A stretch of 64,000 bases of DNA from Elusimicrobiota bacterium (lineage in GTDB: Bacteria; Elusimicrobiota; Elusimicrobia; Elusimicrobiales; UBA9959): assembly GCA_026388155.1 (NCBI GenBank), contig JAPLKI010000025.1, forward strand, positions 408,931-472,930, given 5' to 3'. Made by a program: the position numbers and the translations under genes. The notes beneath the pieces are model-generated. The model did no database searches, was not told the origin of the DNA, and saw only the letters and a program-made list of their open reading frames with translations. This document shows, one piece after another, positions 2,168-63,250 of this stretch (positions are counted from its first letter, which is position 1; each line of letters starts with the position of its first letter).

Positions 2168-2252
2168 CATAAGCCCTAAGCCATATGCTTTAGGCCATAA
2201 GCTTTTAAGGATTTCCTCACAAACCTATGGCGTATAGCGTAAGGCGTATGGC
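2168..2252. repeat. Heptad-hairpin element, GCCATAN type
   Basis: The left arm is 7-bp units such as AAGCCAT and AGGCCAT (from about 2171). The core is AAGGATTTCC near 2207-2216. The right arm carries the complementary word as CGTATAG and CGTAAGG units up to about 2252. The arms pair imperfectly in 7-bp register. It lies between the TauE/SafE and DUF1634 genes. Confidence 0.8.
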
Positions 2253-2265
2253 GGGCGCTACGCCC
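2253..2265 (-). terminator. Short GC hairpin immediately after the TauE/SafE stop codon
   Basis: GGGCG and CGCCC enclose a CTA loop directly abutting the minus-strand stop at 2266. There is no T-run, so termination or mRNA-end protection are both possible. Confidence 0.35.
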
Positions 2266-5298: not shown

Positions 5299-6732
5299 AT
5301 GGAATGGAAAACGATTATTGAGCCGTTTAAAATAAAAAGCGTGGAGCCTCTGGGTTTTACCACCTCGGAGGAAAGACTTAAACTGCTTGAGCAGGCTCAT
5401 TACAATCTTTTTAATATCCGGGCGGAAAAGGTGCTTATAGACCTGCTTACCGACAGCGGCACCGGCGCCATGAGCGCGGCGCAGTGGGGCGGCATAATGG
5501 TAGGCGACGAGTCCTACGCCGGTGCCCGCAGCTATTACAATTTTGAAAACGAAATCAAGGACCTGACGGGCTACGAGGAAGTGATCCCGGTGCATCAGGG
5601 ACGCGCCGCTGAGCACATACTTTTCTCCATGATAGGCGGCCATGGCAAATATATGGTGTCAAATTCGCATTTTGACACTACAAGGGCCAATGTGGAAGCT
5701 TCAGGCGCCGAAGCCATGGATTTCCCGGCCAAAGGGGCGCTCGATTTTGACAGGCCGGGCCCGTTCAAAGGCAATATGGACACGGAAGCGCTTGAAAAAT
5801 TCATAAAGGAAAAGGGCGCCAAAAATATCCCCCTGTGCGTGATGACCGTTACTAATAATTCGCTTGGCGGCCAGCCGGTTTCCATGGAAAACCTGAAGAG
5901 TACGCAAAACATCTGCCGCAAATACGGCATTCCGATGTTTCTGGACTGCGCGCGCTTCGCCGAGAACGCTTATTTCATAAAAGTGCGGGAGAAAGGCTAT
6001 AACAAAACGCCCGTACGCGAAATAGCCCAGGAGATGTTTGAGCTGGCCGACGGCGCCATGATGAGCTCAAAAAAAGACGCTTTCGCCAATATGGGCGGTT
6101 TTCTGGCGATGAACAATACCGAATGGGCAGGCAAGGCGCGCCAGCTGCTGATCCTCACCGAAGGTTTCAATACTTACGGAGGACTCGCCGGCCGCGACCT
6201 TGAAGCCATAGCCATAGGCCTCCGGGAAGTTCTGGATGAAAATTACCTGCAGTACCGCATCCGCTCCACGGCGTATCTGGGCGAGGGGCTGATGCGCCAC
6301 GGAGTGCCGATAGTCATGCCGCCGGGCGGGCACGGCGTTTATATAAACGTAAAAAAATTCCTGCCGCACATAAAACCGCAAAACTTCCCCGCCACGGCGC
6401 TGGCAGCCGCGCTGTATCTGGAGGGAGGCATAAGGGGTGTCGGAATCGGCACGCTGATGTTCGGACGGCGCGACGCGAAAGGCGATTTCCTGCCGGCGGA
6501 CATGGAGCTTTTAAGGCTGGCGATCCCGCGCCGGGTTTACACCCAGAGCCATATAGACTATGTGATAGAGGTTTTCGGGCACCTCGCAAAAAACAAAAAA
6601 GCGATAAAAGGCCTTGAAATAATGGAGGCGCCGAAAGCGCTGGCGCATTTCACGGCCAAGCTTAAACCGGTAAGTAAAAACAATGCCATATGCCATAAGG
6701 GCGCCGCGCCGGCCATAGGCCATAAGCTATAA
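5299..6732 (+). CDS. tnaA: Tryptophanase (tryptophan indole-lyase)
   Basis: A PLP-dependent beta-eliminating lyase of 477 aa that cleaves L-tryptophan to indole, pyruvate and ammonia. IDLLTDSGTGAMS lies near residue 50, VIPVHQGRAAEH near 100 and the PLP-lysine region SSKKDAF near 256-262 (Lys259 expected). The close relative tyrosine phenol-lyase has an arginine at the position where this protein has isoleucine (RGVGIGTLMFG), which favours tryptophanase. The start is the ATG at 5299, 6 bases after AAGGAG; a TTG at 5281 also opens the frame but lacks a site. The family ends at a motif like HFTAKLKPV; here about 19 further residues are encoded mostly by a repeat element. Confidence 0.9.
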   Translation: MEWKTIIEPFKIKSVEPLGFTTSEERLKLLEQAHYNLFNIRAEKVLIDLLTDSGTGAMSAAQWGGIMVGDESYAGARSYYNFENEIKDLTGYEEVIPVHQGRAAEHILFSMIGGHGKYMVSNSHFDTTRANVEASGAEAMDFPAKGALDFDRPGPFKGNMDTEALEKFIKEKGAKNIPLCVMTVTNNSLGGQPVSMENLKSTQNICRKYGIPMFLDCARFAENAYFIKVREKGYNKTPVREIAQEMFELADGAMMSSKKDAFANMGGFLAMNNTEWAGKARQLLILTEGFNTYGGLAGRDLEAIAIGLREVLDENYLQYRIRSTAYLGEGLMRHGVPIVMPPGGHGVYINVKKFLPHIKPQNFPATALAAALYLEGGIRGVGIGTLMFGRRDAKGDFLPADMELLRLAIPRRVYTQSHIDYVIEVFGHLAKNKKAIKGLEIMEAPKALAHFTAKLKPVSKNNAICHKGAAPAIGHKL

Positions 6733-6779
6733 GGGAACTCCTAAAAAGCATATGGCATACGGCTTATGGCTTACGGCAG
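6684..6779. repeat. Heptad-hairpin element, GCCATAN type, overlapping the tnaA 3' end
   Basis: The left arm starts inside tnaA with GCCATAT and later GGCCATA-type units and contains an interrupting GC palindrome (6698-6712). The core is AAGGGAACTCCT at 6731-6742. The right arm (GCATATG, GCATACG, GCTTATG, GCTTACG) ends 25 bases before the next ATG. The core and right arm are nearly identical to those of the element at 43740. Confidence 0.9.
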
Positions 6780-6804
6780 TAACTTTAACTGAAAGCAAAA
6801 GAAC

Positions 6805-10319: not shown

Positions 10320-10425
10320 GGGCTTAAGGCTGAGGGCTGAAGGTATAGTGTAAAATAAAAAAACGAATCTGACTTCTACCCCCCTCATTTCCTTATCCTT
10401 CAGCCTTAAGCCTTCAGCCTTTCCC
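10320..10425. repeat. Heptad-hairpin element, CTTMAGC type
   Basis: The left arm has AGGGCTT, AAGGCTG and AGGGCTG units right after the GlcF-like stop codon. The right arm has CTTCAGC and CTTAAGC units (about 10397-10424). The central part is longer and A-rich and lacks the usual GGAACTCC core. Confidence 0.75.
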
Positions 10426-10439
10426 GACCCTTTCACAAA

Positions 10440-10448
10440 TGCTAAAAT
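10440..10448 (+). promoter_or_regulatory. Possible extended -10 (TGCTAAAAT) ahead of the HD-GYP gene
   Basis: TGC followed by TAAAAT lies between two heptad elements. If used, transcription would begin near 10455, so the second element would form almost the whole 5' leader of the gene at 10561. Confidence 0.35.
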
Positions 10449-10450
10449 AC

Positions 10451-10557
10451 AGCAGGGGCGAGCGTATAGCGAATAGGGCTTAGGGATTAGGGAAGGAGTT
10501 CCTTATTTCAGCTTCCTATCCCCTATACGCTCGCCCCTATACGCTGTCCCTATTCAT
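10451..10557. repeat. Heptad-hairpin element, AGGGNNN/AGCGAAT type
   Basis: Left-arm units AGGGGCG, AGCGTAT, AGCGAAT and AGGGATT lead to the core AAGGAGTTCCTT (about 10493-10504). Right-arm units TCCCCTA, TACGCTC and GCCCCTA end 3-4 bases before the ATG at 10561. The arms are long and well matched. Confidence 0.9.
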
Positions 10558-32994: not shown

Positions 32995-34314
32995 ATGCTG
33001 GAAACTGACGTTCTAATAATCGGCGGCGGGCTTGCCGGCCTCTCCGCGGCCGGGGCGCTGGAAGGCAAAAAAAGTTACATAGCAGCCGAACGCGAGAATC
33101 GCCCGGGCGGCCTTGCCGCCACGGTAAAAAAAGGCGGGTTCCATTTTGATTATTCCGGCCACCTGCTGCACCTGCGCTGGCCAAAAACCGCGGCCCTGAT
33201 ACTGGACGCGCTTAAGGGCAATTGCTCCCGTATAAAACGCGACGCCCGTATTTACGCCCACAAAAACTGGACGCCGTATCCCTTCCAGGTGAACCTGTCC
33301 GGCATGCCGTATAAAGTAAAAAGCGAATGCGTGGGAGGATTCCTTGCGGCGTACAACAACAGCCATAGGCCATACGCCATAGGCCATACGCAGAAAAGCC
33401 CGGAAGTATTCAGCCGCTGGAGCAGAAGGGTTTTCGGAGACGGGATTTCAAAACATTTCATGCTGCCTTACAACGCCAAGCTCTGGCAATACCCGCTGGA
33501 GCGCCTTACCACCGAATGGTGCGCGCCTTTCGTGCCGGTGCCCAAACCTGAAGAAGTGCTTGAGGGCGCCTACGGAAAACGGCGCGACGGCCTGGGCTAC
33601 AACACCGTTTTTCATTATCCGAAACGCGGCGGCATAGGGGCGCTGGCCAACGCTATGGCCCTGATAGCCGGCGGCCTGCGCCTGGGGCTTGAGATTGATA
33701 GTCTTAACCTTAAAAAACGCGTGGCAAATATCCGCCATTTCGGCCCGGTTAATTTTAAACACCTGATAAACACAACTCCGCTGAATGAATTTATCGGCAG
33801 AACTGAGGACGCTCCAGCCGCGGTAAAGCGGGCGGCGGCCGCCTTGCGCCACAATACTGTTTACGTGCTGAACCTTGGGGTCAAAGGCGTAAGGTCAGAC
33901 ATGCACTGGGGATATTTCCCCGAAGCCCGCTTCCCCTTTTACCGGGCCGGCATAGCCAGCAATTTTTCAAAAAAACTTGCGCCGGCCGGCTGCGCCTCTT
34001 TCTATATTGAAATAGCCACCGACGGCCGGGCGCTGAACCTGGCCTCCGCCGAAACGGAAGTAATAAACGGACTTAAGGCCTGCGGCCTTATAGAAAATTC
34101 CGGCCAGATCGTTGAAAAACTCTGGCTTAAAATACCCTGCGCCTATGTGATTTATAACAGGGAAAGAACCGAAGCGCTGCCCGTGATTTTTGACTGGCTT
34201 AAGGCCAATAAAGCCTCCTCCATAGGCCGCTACGGCGCCTGGAAATATTCATTCATGGAAGAAAGCGTAAAAGAAGGCCTGGAAGCGGCGGAGAAAATAC
34301 TAGGTAACCGGTAA
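32995..34314 (+). CDS. FAD-dependent oxidoreductase, amine-oxidase/protoporphyrinogen-oxidase-like, 439 aa
   Basis: DVLIIGGGLAGLSAAGALEG is the dinucleotide-binding motif, followed by RPGGLAATVKKGGFHFDYSGHLLHL, typical of the amine-oxidase/UDP-galactopyranose-mutase-like flavoproteins found in glycan clusters. WRKxM-like and NAKLWQYPLERLTTEW segments also fit that group. The substrate is unknown. Residues 123-133 (SHRPYAIGHTQ) are encoded by an in-frame heptad array at 33361-33393 and look like an insertion. The mRNA is probably leaderless. Confidence 0.78.
   Translation: MLETDVLIIGGGLAGLSAAGALEGKKSYIAAERENRPGGLAATVKKGGFHFDYSGHLLHLRWPKTAALILDALKGNCSRIKRDARIYAHKNWTPYPFQVNLSGMPYKVKSECVGGFLAAYNNSHRPYAIGHTQKSPEVFSRWSRRVFGDGISKHFMLPYNAKLWQYPLERLTTEWCAPFVPVPKPEEVLEGAYGKRRDGLGYNTVFHYPKRGGIGALANAMALIAGGLRLGLEIDSLNLKKRVANIRHFGPVNFKHLINTTPLNEFIGRTEDAPAAVKRAAAALRHNTVYVLNLGVKGVRSDMHWGYFPEARFPFYRAGIASNFSKKLAPAGCASFYIEIATDGRALNLASAETEVINGLKACGLIENSGQIVEKLWLKIPCAYVIYNRERTEALPVIFDWLKANKASSIGRYGAWKYSFMEESVKEGLEAAEKILGNR
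33361..33393. repeat. Heptad array of GCCATAG/GCCATAC units inside a coding sequence
   Basis: Four tandem units alternate GCCATAG and GCCATAC within the flavoprotein gene, the same word as the intergenic GCCATAN elements. No core or opposite arm is present. The array keeps the frame. Confidence 0.85.
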
Positions 34315-34403
34315 CAAAGCGGAAAAAGGTAAGGGCACAGAGTTTTTTTGTTTACCCAGGCTGTTTATACCGGTTACCGATTACCGCCTACTGATTACCG
34401 CTG
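34303..34403. repeat. Heptad-hairpin element, GRTTACC type
   Basis: GGTAACC and GGTAACA overlap the flavoprotein stop codon. The right arm carries GGTTACC, GATTACC, GCCTACT and GATTACC (34373-34400) and ends at the dapA stop. The middle is a degenerate A/T-rich stretch with a seven-T run (34341-34350). Confidence 0.8.
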
Positions 34404-42569: not shown

Positions 42570-42590
42570 AAAAGCTCCTTATAATTGTGC

Positions 42591-42673
42591 GCCATATGCT
42601 TTAAGCCATACGCCATAAGCTTTAAGGAATTTTCTTAAATAGCCTATGGCATACGGCTTATGGCTTATGGCAG
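42591..42673. repeat. Heptad-hairpin element, GCCATAN type
   Basis: Units GCCATAT, GCTTTAA, GCCATAC and GCCATAA lead to a core AAGGAATTTTCTT (42624-42636). The right arm GCCTATG, GCATACG, GCTTATG ends at the phosphofructokinase stop codon. Confidence 0.9.
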
Positions 42674-43708
42674 TTAGAAAAGCACTTCCATCAGTTCAAG
42701 CCACTCTTTTGAAACGGTCTTCAGCTCGCCTGTGGCTTTTTCAAGCGAAACACCCACTATCGTGTTGCCCACAAGCGCGCTCATCATGCCGAATTTACCG
42801 TCGCGCACCAATTGTGCCGCTTTAACTCCCACCCGGGTGGCCAGCATCCTGTCAAACAGAGTGGGTGAACCGCCGCGCTGCATGTGGCCGATAACGGCGG
42901 AGCGGGTTTCTATGCCGGTCTGTTTTTCTATAAAGCCCGCTATGCGCTCGCCCATGCCGCGGTCCCGTAAGATCAGGTGGCCGAACTGGTCAAGCTCGCG
43001 CATGGCCGCGTTTTCACCCGCTTCTTCAAGCTCGGAGGCCTCGCTTGTTACCACCAGGGCGAAGTGTTTGCGCGCGTAAACTTCCTTGATCCTGGCCACG
43101 ATGTCAGCCGGGTTTGTTTTCTTCTCGGGTATACATACATAATCGGCCGAAGCGGCCATGGCGGTAAACAGCGCCACCCAGCCGGCGTGGCGGCCCATAA
43201 CCTCAAGAACCATCACCCGGCGGTGGCTGCGGCCCGTGTCAATAAGGGCCTCGGCGGCCTCCATGGACTTGGTGGCTGAAGTGTCAAAACCGAAAGTGTA
43301 ATCGGTGGCGTTAAGATCGTTGTCCATGGTCTTCGGCACACCCACCACGTTCAGCTTATGCTCCTTGTAAAAACGAGTGGCCACGCCAAGAGTATCTTCG
43401 CCGCCCATAGCGACCAAAGCATGAAGGTCAAGTTTCTTGAAATTCTCAAGGCAGCTTTTAACGTTTTCCTCTTTTTTAAAGGGATTGGTGCGTGAAGTGC
43501 CAAGGATGGTCCCGCCCTTGCCGATAATATATTCGACCAATTCCTTGTTTAAAGGCATGGTAAGGCCTTCCACCAGCCCTTTCCAGCCGTCGGTGATGCC
43601 TATGCACGTGTAGCCGTATTTCTCGGCCGCGTACACGCAGCCGCGGATGGCCGGGTTAAGCCCGGGGCAATCCCCCCCGCCCGTTAAAATCCCGATTTTT
43701 TTAGACAT
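42674..43708 (-). CDS. 6-phosphofructokinase, probably pyrophosphate-dependent, 344 aa
   Basis: MSKKIGILTGGGDCPGLNPAIRG starts the protein; AAGGAG precedes the ATG at 43708 by 9 bases, so the longer open frame is rejected. Residues 102-106 read GGEDT and 125-131 PKTMDND. ATP-dependent enzymes have glycine at these two sites (GGDGS, PGTIDND), so the aspartate and lysine point to PPi as phosphoryl donor. The enzyme phosphorylates fructose-6-phosphate in glycolysis and would act reversibly. Heptad elements lie on both sides of the gene. Confidence 0.88.
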   Translation of the reverse strand: MSKKIGILTGGGDCPGLNPAIRGCVYAAEKYGYTCIGITDGWKGLVEGLTMPLNKELVEYIIGKGGTILGTSRTNPFKKEENVKSCLENFKKLDLHALVAMGGEDTLGVATRFYKEHKLNVVGVPKTMDNDLNATDYTFGFDTSATKSMEAAEALIDTGRSHRRVMVLEVMGRHAGWVALFTAMAASADYVCIPEKKTNPADIVARIKEVYARKHFALVVTSEASELEEAGENAAMRELDQFGHLILRDRGMGERIAGFIEKQTGIETRSAVIGHMQRGGSPTLFDRMLATRVGVKAAQLVRDGKFGMMSALVGNTIVGVSLEKATGELKTVSKEWLELMEVLF

Positions 43709-43739
43709 ATATTTTTTCTCCTTAAAACTGTTTTCGTTT

Positions 43740-43833
43740 GCCATATGCCATAGGCCATAAGCTATAGGGAAACTCCTAAAAAGCATATGGCATATGGCTT
43801 AAAGCTTATGGCAGCCTTTATGCGTATGGCATC
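43740..43833. repeat. Heptad-hairpin element, GCCATAN type
   Basis: Units GCCATAT, GCCATAG, GCCATAA precede the core GGGAAACTCCT (43767-43777). The right arm GCATATG and GCTTATG continues into a loose tail (GCGTATG) ending at the next stop codon. The core and right arm resemble those of the element at 6684. Confidence 0.9.
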
Positions 43834-48449: not shown

Positions 48450-48600
48450 CTTGTCACATGACACAAGCAAGAAAGAACACTGAAGGGTTGAAGTTTCAGG
48501 GAGAGAAGATTGAGCGGTAAGTTATAAGGACTTTATACAACTTTCTCTTTTCCCTTACTTGTGACCTGTGACTTGTGACTTATAGCCTTAACTCGTGTCT
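48450..48600. repeat. Heptad-hairpin element, ACTTGTG type
   Basis: The right arm is regular: ACTTGTG, ACCTGTG, ACTTGTG, ACTTATA (48557-48584). The left part (GTCACAT, GACACAA from 48453) is weaker. The middle has GGTAAGTTATAAGGACTTTATACAACTT, without a clear core. Confidence 0.7.
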
Positions 48601-48626: not shown

Positions 48627-49205
48627 ATGCCGCCGAAATGTCTGTCAGAAAACGACACAAGTCTTATTGAAAAAAAATTCAGGAAAGTTTACGCTTACCG
48701 CGGCAACGCCGTGGCCCTGCGGGCGGACGAAGTGCTCCTGCCGAACGGAAGGAAGGGCACGCGCGAGTTTTTAGAGCATCCGGGCGCGGTGGCCGTGCTG
48801 CCGGTGCTTGACGACGGCCGGCTGATCTTTGTGCGGCAATACCGCTACCCGGTCGGCCGCGTGACTCTTGAAATACCCGCTGGCAAAATGCATTCCCTTA
48901 AAGATTCCCCGCTTAAGCGGGTCAAAGCGGAGCTTAAAGAAGAAACCGGCTGCACCGCGAAAACCATCGAACCACTGCTGGATTTCTGGCCGACCCCCGC
49001 GTTTTCGGACGAATTGCTGCGAATTTATCTGGCCTTCGGCATAAGGCACGGACAGGCTAGCCCCGACGAGGACGAATTTTTGAAAGTGGAAATACTCAGC
49101 TTTAAAAAAGCCTGGGCCATGCTGGAACGCGGCGAAATAAAAGACTCAAAAACCATCATAGCCCTGCAGGCGTATGAACGTCAGGGGAGAGGGATTAGGG
49201 GATAG
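48627..49205 (+). CDS. NUDIX hydrolase, ADP-ribose pyrophosphatase (NudF)-like, 192 aa
   Basis: The N-terminal FLEHPGAVAVLPVLDDGRLIFVRQYRYPVGRVTLEIPAGK segment is the ADP-ribose pyrophosphatase signature. The NUDIX box follows but is degenerate: GKMHSLKDSPLKRVKAELKEETG keeps the E-L-x-E-E-x-G end while the usual first Glu and the Arg of REL are replaced. Substrate may be ADP-ribose or a related nucleoside diphosphate sugar. The last residues, QGRGIRG, are encoded by a heptad element. The mRNA is probably leaderless. Confidence 0.83.
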   Translation: MPPKCLSENDTSLIEKKFRKVYAYRGNAVALRADEVLLPNGRKGTREFLEHPGAVAVLPVLDDGRLIFVRQYRYPVGRVTLEIPAGKMHSLKDSPLKRVKAELKEETGCTAKTIEPLLDFWPTPAFSDELLRIYLAFGIRHGQASPDEDEFLKVEILSFKKAWAMLERGEIKDSKTIIALQAYERQGRGIRG

Positions 49206-49262
49206 GGGTTAGGGAAAGAGTTCCTTATAAACTCTACCCTAGCCCTATGCGCTATAAATATC
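49182..49262. repeat. Heptad-hairpin element, AGGGNNN type, overlapping the NUDIX 3' end
   Basis: AGGGGAG, AGGGATT, AGGGGAT and AGGGGTT start within the CDS. The core AAAGAGTTCCTT is at 49215-49226. The right arm carries TAGCCCT and ATGCGCT. It ends just before the AGGAG ribosome-binding site of the transketolase gene. Confidence 0.9.
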
Positions 49263-54471: not shown

Positions 54472-54503
54472 TTTCTGATTTCTCACCCCTCACCCCTCAG
54501 CCT
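54472..54503. repeat. Short heptad array, CCCCTCA type
   Basis: TTTCTGA, TTTCTCA and CCCCTCA units precede the LptF/G-type stop codon (54507-54509). No facing arm is visible. Confidence 0.6.
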
Positions 54504-62318: not shown

Positions 62319-62397
62319 CCATAGGCTTTACGCCGTAAGCCATAAGCTTTTAGGGAGCTCCTTCAAGCCTATGGCCTACGGCTTACGGCCTAAAGCA
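62318..62397. repeat. Heptad-hairpin element, GCCATAN type
   Basis: GCCATAG, GCTTTAC, GCCGTAA and GCCATAA lead to the core AGGGAGCTCCTT (62352-62363). The right arm holds CCTATGG- and CTTACGG-type units. It begins at the end of the sprA-like palindrome. Confidence 0.9.
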
Positions 62398-63148: not shown

Positions 63149-63152
63149 AGGG

Positions 63153-63250
63153 CAGGGGCGAGGGGCGAGGGGCTAGCGGATAGGGTAAAGGATGCAGGGG
63201 AATAAGGAATTCCTTCCCTAACCCCTATTCGCTATTCGCTAAACGCTGCC
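63153..63250. repeat. Heptad-hairpin element, AGGGGCG/AGCGAAT type
   Basis: AGGGGCG (twice), AGGGGCT, AGCGGAT, AGGGTAA lead to the core AAGGAATTCCTT (63204-63215). The right arm CCCTAAC, CCCTATT, CGCTATT, CGCTAAA, CGCTGCC ends at the stop codon of the amylase. It starts 4 bp after comF and bridges two convergent genes. Confidence 0.92.

What the first reader, a model, noticed from the sequence alone, without database searches (positions are those of the whole stretch)
33355..33396. Heptad array inside the flavoprotein coding sequence
Seen: four alternating GCCATAG/GCCATAC units at 33361-33393 are read in frame as SHRPYAIGHTQ (residues 123-133). The word is identical to that of the intergenic GCCATAN elements far away, but there is no core and no second arm. 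Inference: an array fragment expanded or inserted in a coding region without breaking the frame, which argues that arrays can spread independently of the hairpin.
Basis: partly seen in the sequence, partly recalled or inferred. Interest (0 to 1): 0.7.

Follow-up and report, generated by a model that had tools for sequence, protein, structure and literature searches.

The report
Truncated hairpin repeat inside a gene
A seven-base repeat that this bacterium scatters between its genes as DNA hairpins also sits, cut short and in frame, inside an enzyme gene, where it codes for a floppy surface loop; relatives carry different seven-base repeats at the same spot.

Summary
Window 33362-33389 holds four exact GCCATAG/GCCATAC heptads, read in frame as SHRPYAIGHTQ (residues 123-133) of a UDP-galactopyranose-mutase-like flavoprotein of an Elusimicrobiota MAG. 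It is an insertion: array-bearing homologues have 16-34 loop residues against a median of 10.5 without, and AlphaFold gives pLDDT below 50 only at residues 126-132. One detail is corrected: the array is not core-less. It continues into GCAGAAA, the arm/core junction of the intergenic hairpins, and a complete hairpin about 100 kb away on the same contig matches it at 33 of 35 bases. I read it as a truncated hairpin element (left arm plus start of core), not as evidence that arrays spread without the hairpin. The phenomenon is wider than reported: at the same loop, relatives carry GTCACAR, CTTCAGC, CCTTCAT or GCCATTN heptads, and leucyl-tRNA synthetase and a mannose-1-phosphate guanylyltransferase show the same pattern. 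Heptad arrays run at 47-236 per Mb in five array-rich genomes of the family and 0-8 in two genomes of genus g12. Bacterial heptad repeats and in-frame palindromic inserts are both known; different words at the same coding sites appear new. Strain-level change could not be tested.

The parts
32995..34314 (+). Host gene: UDP-galactopyranose-mutase-like flavoprotein, 439 aa
   Evidence: Conserved in 57 of 59 family genomes; Pfam NAD_binding_8; PDB 3ute E 3.6e-42
33362..33389 (+). Four heptads GCCATAG GCCATAC GCCATAG GCCATAC = left arm of the hairpin element, in frame
   Evidence: 33/35 match to an intact hairpin arm
33390..33397 (+). GCAGAAAA: start of the hairpin core (arm/core junction)
33361..33393 (+). 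Codons of the inserted peptide SHRPYAIGHTQ (residues 123-133), disordered loop
   Evidence: Alignment, loop lengths, pLDDT under 50 at residues 126-132
6683..6786 (.). Intergenic GCCATAN hairpin element (comparison copy)
   Evidence: fold z -2.9
42589..42675 (.). Intergenic GCCATAN hairpin element (comparison copy)
   Evidence: fold z -5.9
43738..43816 (.). Intergenic GCCATAN hairpin element (comparison copy)
   Evidence: fold z -4.4

Best explanation
The tract is a truncated, in-frame copy of the GCCATAN hairpin element dispersed through this Elusimicrobiota genome: the left arm (four heptads) plus the first 7-8 bases of the core. Shown: it is an insertion relative to homologues, has the same word and the same arm/core junction as intact hairpins, and encodes a loop predicted to be disordered. 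Inferred: a hairpin copy entered this permissive loop in an ancestor shared with some related genera; the rest of the core and the right arm were lost, or never copied, in a way that kept the frame; selection keeps the frame and avoids the stop codon (TAC, not TAA or TAG, at the one critical codon). The peptide is most likely only tolerated. Heptad arrays of other words entered the same loop in relatives.
For: Insertion: loop 16 residues against a median of 10.5 in array-free close homologues. Element identity: the tract continues into GCAGAAA, which follows 11 of 56 distinct arrays; GCCNTANGCAGAAA occurs 18 times in this genome against 1 in the reversed control; an intact hairpin near C25:341197 matches 33/35 including the order of the variable bases and folds with z -5.0. 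Same phase, unit number and right junction in G021 and G055. Disordered loop. A complete array-core-array element lies in frame in a RimO-like ORF of G058 (L139), so whole elements can enter genes.
Against: No intermediate with more of the core or the right arm was found at this site, so truncation is inferred. The order of events (insertion, then deletion) is not observed. GCAGAAA is short; a bare array that happened to meet it is unlikely but possible. The sibling search covered about 2.6 Mb of held loci.
Confidence: 0.72

Rival explanations
1. Bare heptad arrays (simple satellite repeats) spread and expand by slippage or template switching, and the flavoprotein array is one of these; the hairpins are pairs of such arrays.
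For: Single-arm arrays of several words lie in many genes. The tract is an exact double of a 14-mer. Heptads are the commonest longer simple repeats in many bacteria, with slippage proposed as the cause (cited in PMC4679880, PMC4692102).
Against: This tract carries the element's arm/core junction and matches an intact hairpin arm 33/35.
Confidence: 0.2
2. The DNA or the peptide of the array is itself selected (a binding site, RNA structure or protein interaction), which is why it is identical in distant relatives.
For: All 10 codons and residues are identical between G000 and G021, while the rest of the protein is 65% identical with 145/266 codons shared at matching residues (p 0.002).
Against: Most of the family lacks the peptide; close relatives have unrelated peptides from other heptad words at the same place; the model is disordered there; the coding tract folds only weakly (z -2.2).
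Confidence: 0.06
3. The peptide is ordinary loop sequence and its repetitiveness is chance or codon bias.
For: G050 and G049 have similar-length loops from less repetitive DNA.
Against: Chance expectation 0.01 in the window; codon shuffles never reach the heptad score; same word and junction as the intergenic elements.
Confidence: 0.02

Closest known systems
Bacterial heptanucleotide repeats (Xanthomonas GGGAATC, Nostoc GGGGA(C/T)T, Beggiatoaceae TAACTGA, Geobacter metallireducens GGGACCG)
   Same: Dispersed tandem 7-base units, mostly intergenic; in G. metallireducens 49 four-heptad elements lie both between and within genes (PMC2700814, PMC4692102, PMC4679880).
   Different: Here several words coexist in one genome, GCCATAN arms pair as hairpins around a core, and the same coding site holds different words in different species.
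Rickettsia palindromic elements (RPE)
   Same: Palindromic repeats inserted in frame in many unrelated genes, adding a peptide compatible with the fold (PMC10969869).
   Different: RPEs are about 150 bp; here 36 bp of a roughly 90-bp element built of 7-base units remains. No sequence comparison with RPEs was made.
PARCEL (palindromic amphipathic repeat coding elements)
   Same: Dispersed coding repeats with dyad symmetry at DNA level (PMC2996958).
   Different: PARCEL repeats are 25-residue protein units in tandem; here the unit is 7 bases, out of step with codons.

Membership tests
GCCATAN hairpin element of this genome | Heptad arm of the word GCCATAN | tested here: met
GCCATAN hairpin element of this genome | Arm/core junction (GCAGAAA type) | tested here: met
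GCCATAN hairpin element of this genome | Second, inverted arm | tested here: not met
   No inverted TATGGCN array follows in the ORF; hence 'truncated copy', not a complete member
Bacterial heptanucleotide repeats | Tandem 7-base units, dispersed, above chance and specific to period 7 | tested here: met
Rickettsia palindromic elements | In-frame insertion in protein genes | tested here: met
Rickettsia palindromic elements | RPE family sequence of about 150 bp | tested here: not met
   The insert is about 36 bp of 7-base units; not filed as an RPE
MITE or REP element mobilised by a Y1 (RAYT-type) transposase | A partner transposase whose presence tracks the elements | tested here: inconclusive
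   Y1_Tnp in 49 of 59 genomes, both with and without arrays
UDP-galactopyranose mutase (host gene) | Sequence similarity to solved enzymes | tested here: met
   3ute E 3.6e-42 over residues 3-344; activity and active-site residues not tested

The most novel reading that the evidence does not exclude
A permissive loop behaves as a docking site for the genome's current heptad repertoire: arrays at the same coding position are replaced or homogenised over evolution to match the words abundant elsewhere in that genome (concerted evolution of coding sites with intergenic hairpins), in several conserved genes.
Probability: 0.25. Interest if true: 0.75.

Novelty: new variant of a known kind. Interest (0 to 1): 0.5.

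Why it matters
It documents recurrent in-frame entry of seven-base repeats, a length out of step with codons, into conserved proteins (LeuRS, a guanylyltransferase, RimO-like, AddB-like, a mutase-like flavoprotein), at positions where related species carry different words. That gives a natural series for asking how heptad arrays copy themselves, why seven, and which protein loops tolerate inserts. It also warns annotators that such loop peptides are repeat DNA and not protein motifs.

Tried and rejected
Loss of mismatch repair as the cause of heptad expansion: MutL_C found in 54 of 59 genomes, including nearly all array-rich ones (G013 the exception). Y1 transposase as driver: present with and without arrays. 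Known structured RNA: no Rfam match in the window. Short-segment horizontal transfer to explain the identical 30 nt in G000 and G021: the raised identity spans a generally conserved region, so no clear tract; not settled. Literature on heptad or hairpin repeats in Elusimicrobiota: none found in the open library. A Fisher test printed used rough counts entered by hand and is not relied on.

Full report
What is there. The tract GCCATAGGCCATACGCCATAGGCCATACGC occupies 33362-33391 of the window, inside a 439-codon ORF at 32995-34314. S123 starts at 33361, so the eleven codons at 33361-33393 give SHRPYAIGHTQ as reported. Tandem GCCATAN pairs occur 10 times in the window against 0.01 expected, and three-unit runs 18 times in the 3.36-Mb genome with 0 in the reversed-pattern control. 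The ORF is real: it is conserved in 57 of 59 genomes of the family, carries a Rossmann-type domain and resembles solved UDP-galactopyranose mutases. NCBIfam places it near PRK07208 but below that model's cut-off. The organism is an Elusimicrobiota MAG, judged by the titles of its closest relatives.

It is an insertion. In an alignment of homologues the stretch between Y120 and E137 is 10-13 residues long in 28 of 30 array-free relatives of 60% identity or more (median 10.5, full range 10-28), but 16 in the window protein and 16-34 in the array-bearing homologues. AlphaFold, run on 31 aligned homologues, gives mean pLDDT 90.2; the only segment under 50 is residues 126-132, between helices 106-123 and 139-164. 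The insert is therefore predicted to be a disordered loop.

It is a piece of the hairpin element. The array does not simply stop: it continues GCCATAC-GCAGAAAA. GCAGAA is the commonest sequence after GCCATAN-type arrays in the loci held at that point (11 of 56). GCCNTANGCAGAAA occurs 18 times in this genome, 24 in G021, 23 in G058, 13 in G012, 10 in G011 and 9 in G055, against 0-3 in the other genomes and 0-2 in the reversed-pattern controls. In some elements GCAGAAA pairs with TTTCTGC before the second arm (9 of 40 loci). In the same contig, near C25:341197, an intact hairpin reads GCCATAGGTTATACGCCATAGGCCATACGCAGAAA, then a core and the inverted arm. It matches the coding tract at 33 of 35 bases, including the G-C-G-C order of the variable base, and folds with z -5.0. 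The simplest reading is a truncated hairpin copy. In the genome sample the variable base is C in 17 and C or T in 65 of 167 arm units. At the one in-frame TAN codon here it is C, giving TAC and no stop.

It is old and shared. G021 carries the identical 30 nt in a protein only 66% identical overall (L076). G055 carries AGCCATAAGCCATACGCCCTAGGCCATACGC at 61% identity (L081). G058 has a GCCATTN version with seven more residues, exactly three heptads (L082). Phase and right-hand junction agree in all. G050 and G049 have loops that look like decayed GCC-led heptads. Between G000 and G021 all ten array codons are identical, against 145 of 266 elsewhere at matching residues (p 0.002); the other two pairs give 8 of 8 (p 0.004-0.005). 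These comparisons share sequences and are not independent. Why the array stays crisp is not settled: homogenisation against same-word elements, short-tract transfer and direct selection all remain possible. Crisp versions occur in genomes that have the word elsewhere, decayed ones in genomes with no three-unit run of it.

Other words occupy the same site. Close relatives of the window protein carry GTCACAR (G022, L027), CTTCAGC (G011, L056) and CCTTCAT (G012, L055). On a tree built without the loop columns, the window protein, G022 and G011 form one supported clade (97/94) with three different words. Those words are common in those genomes: G022 has 70 GTCACAN and no GCCATAN three-unit runs, G011 has 20 CTTCANN and G012 has 9. 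Genomes rich in arrays but without one in this gene also exist (G010, G013, G015).

The pattern repeats in other genes. In leucyl-tRNA synthetase, G012 and G055 have GTCACAR and G011 has GTCGCCA at one loop where most relatives are about 12-18 residues shorter; G011 has two further arrays downstream. In a mannose-1-phosphate guanylyltransferase, G000 and G021 have GCCATAN after YGYIK, while G022 and a more distant homologue in G055 have GTCACAR there. Pfam domains support the identities of these ORFs. A complete array-core-array element lies in frame in a RimO-like ORF of G058 (L139). In stretches of 120-464 kb, period-7 runs number 236 per Mb in G011, 107 in G022 (one of its 15 runs is a masked N stretch), 100 in G055, 57 in G021 and 47 in G000, against 8 and 0 in two genomes of genus g12; other periods apart from 14 are much rarer. 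GTCACAN runs occur in 12 of the 46 family members and in none of 249 other genomes of an even sample of the phylum.

Known background. Heptads are reported as the commonest longer simple repeats in many bacteria, with slippage proposed as the cause (cited in PMC4679880 and PMC4692102). Geobacter metallireducens has 49 copies of a four-heptad element within and between genes (PMC2700814). Rickettsia palindromic elements insert in frame in many genes (PMC10969869). What I did not find described is the same coding position carrying different heptad words in related species; the literature search covered open-licence papers only.

Limits. The genomes are MAGs or drafts with one per species, so strain-level unit changes and empty sites could not be examined. 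ORFs were called by length, not by a gene finder. The sibling search covered about 2.6 Mb of held loci. Mobility of the elements, and any enzyme responsible, remain unidentified: neither Y1 transposase presence nor MutL loss tracks with the arrays.

Noticed in passing
window 34304-34401: A hairpin-like element of a different heptad word (GGTAACC / TTACCGN) overlaps the 3' end of the same flavoprotein gene and supplies its last codons and stop codon TAA.
   Followed up: partly
L003 near 1501 (G000:C7:174516): A GCCATAN array forms the C-terminus of an ORF and supplies its TAA stop (...QRAIGHTP*).
   Followed up: partly
L323-L329 (G055:C11), L195 (G000:C16), L189: CCTTCAT or CTTCAGC arrays encode part of the apparent signal peptides of several unrelated ORFs (FILHPSSFIL, FLLQPSIFS), suggesting signal peptides are another permissive entry site.
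   Followed up: no
L015 (G000:C25 near 400663): A GTCACAR array lies close beside a TATGGCT array: two words in one place.
   Followed up: no
L055 and L056, flavoprotein loop: The CTTCAGC-type arrays end exactly where the host codons CCTGAAG (reverse complement of CTTCAGG) begin, which might reflect microhomology or hairpin priming at insertion.
   Followed up: no
L159 (G000:C13 near 32252): A GTCACAR array lies in frame inside a PD-(D/E)XK nuclease (AddB-like) ORF of the window's own genome.
   Followed up: partly
window 2226-2253, 10397-10553, 48557-48581, 49183-49215, 54482-54499, 62367-62392, 63150-63241: Further heptad tandem repeats of other words (TATGGCG, CCTTCAG, TAGGGAT, ACTTGTG, AGGGATT, CTCACCC, GCCTACG, CTATTCG).
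   Followed up: no
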